This document shows positions 39,097 through 42,983 of a stretch of 64,000 nt of DNA, piece after piece (position 1 is the first letter of the stretch; each line of letters opens with the position of its first letter). Source of the DNA: Thamnidium elegans (lineage: Eukaryota > Mucoromycota > Mucoromycetes > Mucorales > Mucoraceae); contig JAIXMG010000027.1 in NCBI GenBank assembly GCA_025201345.1, forward strand, positions 337,501 to 401,500, in the 5' to 3' direction. The position numbers were made by a program, and so were the translations under genes. Under the pieces are notes generated by a model. The model saw only the letters and a list, made by a program, of their open reading frames with translations, was not told the DNA's origin and made no database searches.

Positions 39097-40073
39097 AGTG
39101 TCAGCATTAAGTGGTTACTAACATGTTTTGCCTTTGTTTTTATTAGACTATTGTTATCGATGGCAAAGGTAAAAAGAGAGAGAGAGAGAGATATGAAACA
39201 AGTGGAGTGTAAAAAAAAAAAAAGAGAAATTGCAATGACTGATACGTTTATACACGCTTTAAATAGGTCATTTGTTAGGTCGTCTTGCCAGTATCATTTC
39301 TAAGCAAGCTCTCAATGGCCAAAAGGTTGTTGTTGTTAGATGTGAAGCCTTAAACGTTTCCGGTGAATTCTTCCGTAACAAGTGTATGTAAACTATTTAT
39401 TTTTATTTTCACAGAGAGAGCGAGAGAGAGAGAGAAATTTGATGACCAACGAGGTACACGTAAAAGAAAAAGCAATCGAGTTTTCAGTTCACTCGTAGAA
39501 AAAAAATAATGTTGGCATTAAACAAAATACGCGCACATAGAGAGATAAATAGAGAGAGAGAGAGAGAGAGAGAAAGGGAGGAACCTTGTTTTTTGTATTA
39601 ATGTTTTTTATTTGTTATTAGTGAAGTACCATGCTTACCTCAACAAGCGTTGTCTTGTCAACCCCACTCGTGGTCCTTTCCATTTCCGTGCTCCTTCTCG
39701 TATCTTGTATAAGGCTATCCGTGGTATGGTTCCCCATAAGACTGCCCGTGGTGCCGCTGCCTTAGATCGCATTAAGCTTTTCGAAGGTGTCCCCGCTCCT
39801 TATGACCGTGTTAAGCGTATGGTTATCCCTGCCGCTCTTCGTGTTCTCCGTCTTAAGCCCGGTCGTAAGTATACCACCATTGGTCGTATCTCTCACGAAG
39901 TTGGATGGAAGTACCAAGATGTTGTTGCCAAGCTCGAAGAGAAGCGTAAGGCCAAGTCTGCTGCTTACTACCAACGTAAGACCGCTCTCGCTGCCATCCA
40001 AAAGAAGGCTGTTGAGTCCAAGGCTGATTCCCTCAAGGAAATCAACTCTGCCATCGCTGCTCTCGGCTATTAA
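39000..40073 (+). CDS. RPL16: 60S ribosomal protein L16 (uL13, L13a)
   Basis: A structural protein of the large cytosolic subunit. Four exons, 39000-39017, 39147-39168, 39267-39383 and 39622-40073, give 202 residues, the usual eukaryotic length (yeast 199). The first two exons are very small (MSTFEK, then TIVIDGKG), typical of fungal ribosomal protein genes. [75 protein letters not shown] and the basic C-terminal helix are uL13 hallmarks. Codon use is markedly more C-ending (GTC, ATC, CGT, AAG) than in neighbouring genes, as expected for high expression. Introns carry GA-repeat tracts. Confidence 0.97.
39173..39576. repeat. GA dinucleotide repeats in L16 introns
   Basis: Three separate (GA)n/(AG)n tracts sit in introns 2 and 3 of L16, at about 39174-39191, 39413-39435 and 39550-39574. 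They are intronic and purine-rich on the coding strand. Confidence 0.85.
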
Positions 40074-41160
40074 ATTCCTTTTTGGTTTTCAATTCTTTGA
40101 GAAATTAAAAATAAATGATACTTAAAAAAACATTATTTTTGACAGTTGCGTAAAATCATGATCTGATTATCGGAGTTTTCAATATTTTTTGAAGTGATTT
40201 TAAAAAGGCTTTTGGTCTTCATGTAGTTAGCGTCTGGACGACTGAAAAAACCGTCCGGGCGCTGACTGGGGGAAGACCTTTTGTATGTTCTAAAGAGCTG
40301 TGAGGGGGAGATTTTTTTTTTTGATAAAAAGGATAAGCATCGTACAAGAAATGTAGACATAATTATCGTCGCATGAAATAAGTTCGATAAGTACAGACGA
40401 GCGTATAGATAGATACAAAACAAAATTGTGGTATAATACGTCTTAAATCTTTTTTTATCAACGTACTTATTCCAACCATATCAAATTGATATTTTCCCTT
40501 CGCTTACTCGCAGCGAAAAAAAAAAGATAACCCTGTTAAGATGGTTCCATACACTACGCTGTGTTTTTTAATTATCTCTTTCTTGGTATTGCATGCAAGT
40601 ATGAAACTTTGTACTCAAGTGTTAAAACAGATATATCTACTCTAAACTGTCTATGTGTTATGGGCCGTGTAAATCGTCTTTATTTCTTTGAGATACGGAA
40701 AGAGCTTGAAGTTCTGGGGGAAACGCGCTTAAAAGCACATGTATTTGAATTAACTAAACTACTGTCTACGTTATCAATGTAACTATATCAGATGATACCG
40801 TCGCTAATTCCAGACTCAAAATTTATTATAATGTATAAACGTCTAAGATCAAATAAAGGCTGATGTAATAATGCATTGGTTAGTCACAAGTGAGACATAA
40901 ACCAGGTGCAACCATATAAACATTTGTACCAAGATTATGTTGCACAATTAGATGGGAACCTTGGAATCCCTTGAAAAAGCCGTTTTGACCCGGGTAGTAG
41001 GTATATAAAATATAGATCTATTTATTCTATAGAAAAGTATACCCAACAAATATTTCTAGATATATCATAGGTATTTTTATACAAATAAGTTATTGAGTTT
41101 GATACAAAAGAACCTTTCGGCAAAGTAATTTTATTAAAAGAGAAAAAAGAAATGACATGG
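40074..41160. other. Convergent interval between L16 and THI4
   Basis: Two short open frames (minus 40133-40423 and plus 40561-40782) lack any family resemblance and are not called; the second, with KELEVLGETRLKAHVFELTK, reads like a helical protein fragment and might be gene debris. A candidate THI4 poly(A) signal AATAAA on the minus strand lies at 41130-41135, just beyond the riboswitch aptamer. Confidence 0.45.
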
Positions 41161-41252
41161 GCTAACTTCCGTGCGCTGCTATTATGCAGAAAATCACGTT
41201 CGAAGGGTATGATCTCAGCAAGGAATTAAAAATTCCAAGCACCCCTAGTGCC
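41161..41252 (-). promoter_or_regulatory. TPP (thiamine pyrophosphate) riboswitch aptamer, in the THI4 3' UTR
   Basis: Read on the minus strand, this segment has the thi-box elements in the right order: GGCACUAGGGGUGCU, a short hairpin (GGAAUU-UUU-AAUUCC), CUGAGA, AUACCCUU closing P2, GAACGUGAU, CUGCAUAAUAGCAGCG and CACGGAAGU with UAGCC closing P1. P4 is built from CGUG/CACG where the bacterial thiM aptamer uses CCU/AGG, so the helix is kept by compensating bases. THI4 is on the same strand and its stop codon is 98 bases upstream, so the aptamer is in the 3' UTR. Thiamine pyrophosphate presumably binds and lowers THI4 expression, by splicing or 3'-end processing. Recognition is by consensus pattern; no covariance-model score was computed. 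Confidence 0.92.
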
Positions 41253-41349
41253 GGTCGAGAAGAAATGAACCAATTCCAACCAACAAAAAAACCTGCTTAA
41301 AAAAAGAGAAAGAAAGAAAGAAAGTTAACGCCAAATATCATTAGAAAAT

Positions 41350-42983
<1,634 letters not shown>

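What the first reader, a model, noticed from the sequence alone, without database searches (positions are those of the whole stretch)
41161..41252. TPP riboswitch located in the 3' UTR of THI4
Seen: on the THI4 strand, 98 nt after the stop codon, all conserved elements of the thi-box aptamer occur in order (GGGGUGCU, a P3 hairpin, CUGAGA, AUACCCUU, GAACGUGAU, AUAAU, AGCAGCG, CGGAAGU), and P1, P2, P3, P4 and P5 can all pair; P4 is changed to CGUG/CACG with compensation. Known: TPP riboswitches in filamentous fungi mostly act from 5' introns of thiamine genes, whereas the plant THIC riboswitch acts from the 3' UTR. Inference: this fungus controls THI4 from its 3' end, an independent parallel to plants. 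An AATAAA lies 25 nt beyond the aptamer, and no aptamer was found upstream of THI4.
Basis: partly seen in the sequence, partly recalled or inferred. Interest (0 to 1): 0.9.

Follow-up and report, generated by a model that had tools for sequence, protein, structure and literature searches.

The report
Fungal vitamin-B1 riboswitches at gene ends
In this mould the vitamin-B1 sensor RNA of the gene THI4 lies behind the gene instead of in front of it, as do the four other such sensors found in the genome, and part of the THI4 sensor exactly mirrors a stretch of the gene's last intron, which suggests that it controls the gene from its tail end.

Summary
Confirmed and extended. The element at 41256-41151 (-) is a TPP aptamer: RF00059 gives 46.7 bits, below the gathering score of 54.3, but E = 6.8e-7 over the 34-Mb genome. 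It starts about 100 nt after the THI4 stop codon, and the next gene is convergent.

The finding is wider than reported. The genome has five RF00059 matches, and all 5 of 5 lie 3' of a stop codon on the sense strand: THI4, NMT1/THI5 and three MFS transporters. A 2024 survey places the Mucoromycota sugar-transporter group in 5' UTRs.

A candidate mechanism emerged for THI4. Twelve nt of the P4-P5 5' strand (41199-41188) perfectly complement the last coding intron beside its branch point (41476-41465): 2 of 2000 intron shuffles, 3 of 1000 upstream shuffles, 0 of 76 other introns reach this. The adjoining aptamer bases complement that intron's donor. Six THI4 models of other Mucorales end where that intron would be retained.

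Aptamer and 3' position are shown; TPP response and the sign of the splicing effect are inferred. The other four genes lack such a match.

The parts
41151..41256 (-). TPP aptamer in the THI4 3' flank (core 41252-41160)
   Evidence: RF00059; fold
41188..41199 (-). P4-P5 5' strand ACGTGATTTTCT, 12-nt perfect complement of intron 2
41200..41210 (-). aptamer P2 3' strand and J2-4 (ATACCCTTCGA), complement with one mismatch of the intron-2 donor region
41446..41515 (-). THI4 intron 2, last coding intron; retention gives ...DGAPRMV and a stop
41465..41476 (-). intron-2 segment AGAAAATCACGT complementary to P4-P5
41459..41465 (-). intron-2 branch point TACTAAC
   Evidence: sequence; motif as in the introns
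41512..41522 (-). intron-2 donor region TCGAATGGTAT, 10 of 11 pairs with the aptamer
41350..42396 (-). THI4 coding region (exons 42396-41611, 41554-41516, 41445-41350)
41555..41610 (-). THI4 intron 1
41293..41344 (-). acceptor-like signal after the stop: TTCTAAT ... TTTTTTTAAGCAG (8.1 bits, 61st percentile of the training acceptors)
41130..41135 (-). AATAAA downstream of the aptamer

Best explanation
A TPP riboswitch in the 3' UTR controls THI4 by acting backwards on the last coding intron. Without TPP, aptamer strands that would form P2, P4 and P5 pair with intron 2 (12 nt beside the branch point, and the donor). With TPP they close into the aptamer and let the intron go. I commit to negative feedback: contact at low TPP favours productive splicing, and loss of contact at high TPP leads to intron-2 retention and a protein that stops at ...DGAPRMV without its conserved C-terminal end. 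Shown: aptamer, 3' position, complementarity, and that retention truncates the protein. Inferred: TPP binding, the contact in vivo, and its sign; the sign is chosen from feedback logic, and plain occlusion would predict the opposite. The other four genes also carry the aptamer 3' of the stop, but their output step must differ; NMT1 resembles the plant layout.
For: Aptamer. Position 3' of the stop in 5 of 5 genes; the stops of NMT1 and both sugar transporters agree with public T. elegans proteins. Complement: 12 nt, the longest in the 1.18 kb upstream; 12 or more in 2 of 2000 intron-2 shuffles, 3 of 1000 upstream shuffles, 0 of 76 other introns, best 9. Ten-mers with at most one mismatch: 9 in intron 2 plus 10 nt of exon, against 0 of 300 shuffles with as many; the donor match alone recurs in 13 of 1000 shuffles. 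Without ligand energy the duplex state is 9.7-11.8 kcal/mol better than the folded aptamer in 5 of 5 windows, with branch accessibility 0.76 against 0.11-0.44. Six Mucorales THI4 models stop just after DGAPRM (P0019, P0020, P0024, P0044, P0050, P0054), five of them with a normal intron-1 junction. Precedent: in N. crassa aptamer segments pair with splicing elements without TPP, and in NCU01977 this promotes the productive site (PMC5997356, passages).
Against: Plain occlusion of donor and branch by the unliganded aptamer would block splicing at low TPP, the wrong sign for feedback. The two contacts cross if formed together (pseudoknot) or exclude each other. Local folds with 60 or 100 nt of flank leave the branch point open without any contact (0.76 and 0.77, rank 71 and 72 of 76) and blocking the 12 nt hardly changes it. 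Duplex probability in the free ensemble depends on the window (0.505, 0.870, 0.009, 0.020, 0.341). About 10 kcal/mol for the duplex may be too much for TPP to reverse at equilibrium. The 12-nt match was first seen among 16 tested windows. The other four aptamers have no comparable upstream complement. Truncated gene models may be annotation errors, and two NCBI models end in intron 1 instead (P0032, P0033). No RNA data and no DNA of relatives were at hand.
Confidence: 0.38

Rival explanations
1. Plant-like mechanism: the aptamer controls splicing of a 3'-UTR intron or 3'-end formation, giving unstable or differently ended mRNAs at high TPP.
For: 5 of 5 aptamers are 3' of the stop, a placement common to genes without a nearby coding intron. 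NMT1: GTAAGT directly after TGA (7.5 bits; as good within 12 nt of the stop in 1 of 94 control flanks), TACTAAT at +50, AATAATAG at +160 = aptamer edge (5.9 bits). L016: donor over the stop (6.2), branch motif +74, acceptor +102 (6.6). Plants: stop codon directly followed by an intron in most species, 7 bases of the aptamer removed by splicing (PMC5853225, passages).
Against: No donor passed the threshold in the THI4 3' UTR and the L017 signals are weak. The NMT1 branch-to-AG distance of about 110 nt is long for this genome. The AG in P2 scores below the training acceptors in THI4 and NMT1 (0.00 percentile). NMT1 donor-aptamer pairing is no better than shuffles (95 of 200). The public L016 protein ends at the unspliced stop.
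Confidence: 0.33
2. The aptamer acts in the mature mRNA, on poly(A) site choice, stability or translation, without splicing.
For: AATAAA follows the THI4 aptamer by 25 nt; AATAAA lies between stop and aptamer in the three transporters.
Against: AATAAA is common in 3' flanks here; accessibility of these sites did not separate free from bound; [quoted passage not shown]
Confidence: 0.17
3. The aptamers are silent relics or have lost regulation, as reported for diatom THIC.
For: Diatom 3'-UTR aptamers with strong conservation did not respond to thiamine (PMC9544697, passages).
Against: Five aptamers with different but re-paired P4 and P5 sequences keep the binding core, which suggests selection.
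Confidence: 0.08
4. The aptamer is a 5' leader of an unannotated or downstream gene.
For: For the two sugar transporters a same-strand gene follows at about 1.1 kb (PHO4 family) and 0.55 kb (PRP39).
Against: For THI4, NMT1 and the MFS_1 gene the next sizeable ORF is on the opposite strand; the five upstream genes are the thiamine or transporter genes known to carry this switch.
Confidence: 0.04

Closest known systems
Plant THIC 3'-UTR TPP riboswitch (and THI1 in mosses and some gymnosperms)
   Same: Aptamer 3' of the stop codon of a thiamine biosynthesis gene; in NMT1 also a stop-adjacent donor and an AG at the aptamer edge.
   Different: THI4 here shows no 3'-UTR donor and its aptamer matches the last coding intron; other gene set (THI4, NMT1, transporters), other kingdom. 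Plant details from passages of PMC10226581 and PMC5853225.
Neurospora crassa NMT1 and NCU01977 TPP riboswitches (types I and II of PMC5882874)
   Same: Fungal aptamer, part of which pairs with a splicing element of the same pre-mRNA when TPP is absent; premature stop in the off state for NCU01977.
   Different: There the aptamer is inside the regulated intron; here it is downstream of it, beyond the stop codon.
Green algal TPP riboswitches predicted to pair with a branch point
   Same: Branch-point region as target; premature stops when unspliced (PMC5997356, passage).
   Different: Pairing there is predicted with TPP, not without it; [quoted passage not shown]
Mucoromycota TPPsw-THI4, -NMT1 and -SUGAR groups (PMC11683625)
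   Same: Same classes of target genes.
   Different: That survey says SUGAR aptamers are consistently in 5' UTRs and that most aptamers are type I; here 5 of 5 are 3' of the stop. Seen as passages only.
Postia placenta eIF5B 3'-UTR TPP riboswitch (PMC5882874)
   Same: The only earlier fungal 3'-UTR case met in the passages read.
   Different: Unrelated gene, not validated by its authors' folding, no mechanism.

Membership tests
TPP riboswitch (RF00059) | Match to the covariance model | tested here: met
   Full-length match, E = 6.8e-7 genome-wide; but 46.7 bits is below the gathering score 54.3
TPP riboswitch (RF00059) | P1-P5 fold with CUGAGA and the conserved J2-4 and L5 motifs | tested here: met
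   four of five fold so by MFE, NMT1 needs UGAGA kept unpaired (1.5 kcal/mol)
TPP riboswitch (RF00059) | P4 and P5 pairing kept through sequence change | tested here: met
   read by eye: P4 CGUG/CACG, CCU/AGG, ACG/CGU, GCG/CGC; P5 CUGC/GCAG, CAGG/CCUG, CAUGU/ACAUG; no formal covariation count was run
TPP riboswitch (RF00059) | Binds TPP and changes expression | not testable with these tools
   needs in-line probing and thiamine response
Plant THIC-type 3'-UTR switch | Aptamer downstream of the stop codon, sense strand | tested here: met
   5 of 5 genes
Plant THIC-type 3'-UTR switch | 3'-UTR intron with donor near the stop and acceptor at the aptamer edge | tested here: inconclusive
   NMT1 fits in outline; no THI4 3'-UTR donor passed the threshold
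[quoted passage not shown]
   NMT1 donor pairing no better than shuffles, 95 of 200
N. crassa-type aptamer-to-splice-element pairing | Aptamer strand complementary to a splicing element of the same pre-mRNA | tested here: met
   THI4 only: 12 nt at the intron-2 branch region and 10 of 11 at its donor; not found in the other four
N. crassa-type aptamer-to-splice-element pairing | Aptamer lies within the regulated intron | tested here: not met
   193 bases separate the end of intron 2 from the aptamer core

The most novel reading that the evidence does not exclude
A eukaryotic riboswitch that sits wholly in the 3' UTR and controls splicing of an upstream coding intron by base-pairing aptamer strands to that intron's branch region and donor, as one output of a lineage in which every detected TPP riboswitch lies behind its gene.
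Probability: 0.42. Interest if true: 0.88.

Novelty: new variant of a known kind. Interest (0 to 1): 0.74.

Why it matters
In the papers seen, fungal TPP riboswitches work from 5' UTRs or from introns before or within the coding region, with one unvalidated 3'-UTR exception (PMC5882874, PMC11683625; passages). A genome in which 5 of 5 lie 3' of the stop codon puts a plant-like placement into fungi, conflicts with a published statement on the Mucoromycota sugar-transporter group, and offers two testable outputs in one organism: a plant-like 3'-UTR layout (NMT1) and a backward contact with a coding intron (THI4). If the THI4 contact is real, a riboswitch need not lie inside the intron that it controls.

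Tried and rejected
1. I first read L002-L004 as transporters with 5' aptamers. That was an orientation error; strands and stop codons show 3' placement in all three, and entry 2 corrects it.

2. A local intron-2 hairpin TAGTAC/GTACTA hiding the branch point was proposed and not supported: helix probability 0 to 0.11 with the aptamer folded, and local folds leave the branch open.

3. A C-rich intron-2 stretch pairing with P2 looked good by eye but is worse than shuffles (176 of 200 as good or better).

4. Global duplex scans of aptamer against upstream RNA: THI4 7 of 60 shuffles as good; NMT1 0 of 60, best duplex in the coding region, not followed up. The observed scan used 5-nt steps and the shuffles 10-nt steps, which favours the observed value.

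5. Accessibility of splice and poly(A) sites with free and bound aptamers did not discriminate overall; the intron-2 branch went from 0.74 to 0.50.

6. A plant-type acceptor in P2 scores at the 0.00 percentile of the training acceptors in THI4 and NMT1.

7. A search for Mucorales DNA in genome contigs listed 80 loci with bacterial and archaeal titles, 45% identity or less, so no cross-species test of the 3' position or the 12-nt match was possible.

8. A C-terminal change of the L016 transporter by splicing across its stop codon is not seen in the public protein, which ends FGAK.

9. A GC-rich motif before T-runs in 3' flanks was looked for and left aside.

Literature: that no fungal 3'-UTR case for thiamine genes was met rests on searches in an open-access library. 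I saw passages of PMC5882874 (also part 1 of 2 of its section 7), PMC11683625, PMC9544697, PMC4260697, PMC4133162, PMC10226581, PMC5853225, PMC5997356, PMC7404189 and PMC8786325, and search listings for the rest. Supplements could not be opened. Moldovan 2018, Wachter 2007, Bocobza 2007, Croft 2007, Cheah 2007 and Li and Breaker 2013 were not read.

One search replaced a recalled gene name by a Pfam result.

Full report
What is there. On the minus strand, about 100 nt after the THI4 stop codon (TAA 41352-41350), the window holds a complete TPP aptamer. RF00059 matches 41256-41151 from first to last model position with 46.7 bits, E = 1.7e-7 in a 2-kb stretch and 6.8e-7 in the whole 34-Mb genome. 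The score is under Rfam's gathering value (54.3), so a gathering scan of the window shows nothing. I take this as a limit of the model for this lineage: 4 of the 5 matches in this genome are under the cut-off, and a survey reports that RF00059 often fails on fungal aptamers with long P3 (PMC11683625, passages). A degenerate pattern of the binding core hits the genome exactly five times, at the same five places, and the reversed control pattern 0 times. By minimum free energy the THI4 aptamer folds into P1-P5, with P4 changed to CGUG/CACG.

The gene and the organism. THI4 has two introns (41610-41555 and 41515-41446) and encodes 306 aa; the longest ORF matches Thi4 with E = 1.2e-97, and the protein is 95% identical to that of Mucor saturninus. 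It is the only locus of the genome with a long Thi4 match. NMT1 is 100% identical to a Thamnidium elegans protein over its whole length, and one transporter over 95% of the query. The longest contigs given for these clusters (1,218,868 and 1,349,789 bases), and 655,683 for a third T. elegans protein, equal the lengths of contigs C64, C45 and C13 of this genome. T. elegans belongs to Mucorales.

Five of five. The five RF00059 matches at E <= 0.001 all lie 3' of a stop codon on the sense strand: THI4 (about 100 nt after the stop), NMT1/THI5 (160), an MFS_1 transporter in L015 (118), and two Sugar_tr transporters in L016 (244) and L017 (335); distances are to the start or near the start of the aptamer. 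My stops for NMT1 and both sugar transporters agree with the C-termini of public T. elegans proteins; that of the MFS_1 gene was not checked in this way. For THI4, NMT1 and the MFS_1 gene the next sizeable ORF is on the opposite strand (a ribosomal L13-family ORF; a Paf67-family ORF; a 362-aa ORF without a Pfam match). For the two sugar transporters a same-strand gene follows at about 1.1 kb (PHO4 family) and 0.55 kb (PRP39), so a leader role is less firmly excluded there. This placement conflicts with PMC11683625, which says that the sugar-transporter group lies consistently in 5' UTRs; that survey covers medically relevant species, and I could not open its supplement. The Lichtheimia genome paper mentions a TPP riboswitch in all basal fungi without its position (PMC4133162, passage).

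Contact with the last intron of THI4. The 5' strand of P4-P5, ACGTGATTTTCT (41199-41188), is a perfect complement of AGAAAATCACGT in intron 2 (41476-41465), which abuts the branch point TACTAAC (41465-41459). It is the longest Watson-Crick complement between the aptamer and the 1.18 kb upstream. A match of 12 or more arises in 2 of 2000 dinucleotide shuffles of intron 2, in 3 of 1000 shuffles of the upstream stretch, and in 0 of 76 other introns of this genome, whose best is 9. Those introns come from an ORF-bridging harvest that gave 12 on reversed sequence, so some may be false. The match was first seen among 16 tested site windows; the upstream-wide test does not depend on that choice. In the same call the intron-2 donor window also paired unusually well (2 of 200 shuffles as good). 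One search shows why: the aptamer bases that directly precede the 12-mer, ATACCCTTCGA (41210-41200), pair with the donor region TCGAATGGTAT (41522-41512) in 10 of 11 positions. A 10-mer match at the donor recurs in 13 of 1000 shuffles. Intron 2 with 10 nt of exon holds 9 ten-mer matches with at most one mismatch, and 0 of 300 shuffles hold as many. The two contacts cross, so they would form a pseudoknot or exclude each other.

What retention would do. If intron 2 is kept, translation reads ...DGAPRMV and stops, losing the [12 protein letters not shown](K/R)AA end seen in the full-length sequences. Among the 120 listed homologues (of 3191), six Mucorales models end just after DGAPRM: Parasitella P0019, Mucor fragilis P0020, Rhizopus stolonifer P0024, Backusella P0044, Cunninghamella P0050 and P0054. 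Five of them have a normal intron-1 junction; P0044 does not (an alignment of 36 of the 120). About a dozen metagenomic models, and two NCBI models (P0032, P0033), end at intron 1 instead. Intron-2 retention may therefore be a recurrent isoform; this does not show dependence on TPP, and it may be annotation error.

The sign is open. Without ligand energy, the ensemble with the 12-nt duplex is 9.7 to 11.8 kcal/mol more stable than that with the folded aptamer in 5 of 5 windows, and the branch point is more open (0.76 against 0.11-0.44). Against this, folds with local flanks leave the branch open anyway (0.76 and 0.77) and blocking the 12 nt makes little difference, and duplex probability in the free ensemble swings from 0.009 to 0.870 with the window. 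Plain occlusion of donor and branch would block splicing without TPP, which is the wrong sign for feedback. In N. crassa NCU01977, by contrast, pairing near a splice site promotes its use (PMC5997356, passages). I choose feedback logic, with reduced confidence.

The other genes. No comparable complement was found upstream of the other four aptamers. NMT1 has the plant layout in outline: GTAAGT directly after TGA (7.5 bits; as good a donor within 12 nt of the stop in 1 of 94 control flanks), TACTAAT at +50, and AATAATAG at +160, the 5' edge of P1 (5.9 bits). In most plants studied the THIC stop is directly followed by an intron, and splicing removes 7 bases of the aptamer (PMC5853225, passages). 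But the branch-to-AG distance of about 110 nt is long, and donor-aptamer pairing is no better than shuffles (95 of 200). The L016 transporter has a complete intron signal across its stop codon, yet the public protein ends at the unspliced stop.

Verdict. The aptamer class is known, and 3'-UTR placement is known in plants, diatoms and prasinophyte algae. A fungal genome with all its detected TPP aptamers behind their genes, and a 3'-UTR aptamer with antisense matches to an upstream coding intron, were not met in my searches. I file it as a new variant of a known kind.

Noticed in passing
window 40214-40278 (-): Nested inverted repeats (GGTCTTC...GAAGACC and CCGGACG...CGTCCAG) within about 200 nt after the + strand L13-family ORF that ends at 40073, close to GGGGGAGA followed by a T-run; no Rfam match at gathering level.
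   Followed up: no
C45:789366-789381 (L016), C64:209117-209132 and others: A motif like CCGGGGAG before seven T: 13 genome hits with up to one mismatch against 2 for the reversed pattern; at least two lie in gene 3' flanks.
   Followed up: partly
L015 and L016, between stop codon and aptamer: Two transporters of different Pfam best match share TTAATAAATAGRTTCRCAA upstream of very similar aptamers, as if a 3' module had been copied between genes.
   Followed up: no
L014 near 3531 (P3 of the NMT1 aptamer): The best-scoring acceptor listed for the NMT1 3' region, ATTTTTCTATTTCAG (9.2 bits), lies inside P3 of the aptamer.
   Followed up: no
L014, about 46 nt after the NMT1 aptamer: A 12-nt A/T-only complement between P3 and an AATAAA-containing stretch (11 of 300 shuffles as long), possibly low-complexity chance.
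   Followed up: no
hit list: No T. elegans name among the 120 listed THI4 homologues, although T. elegans NMT1 and sugar transporters are held; the public THI4 model may be missing or misbuilt.
   Followed up: no
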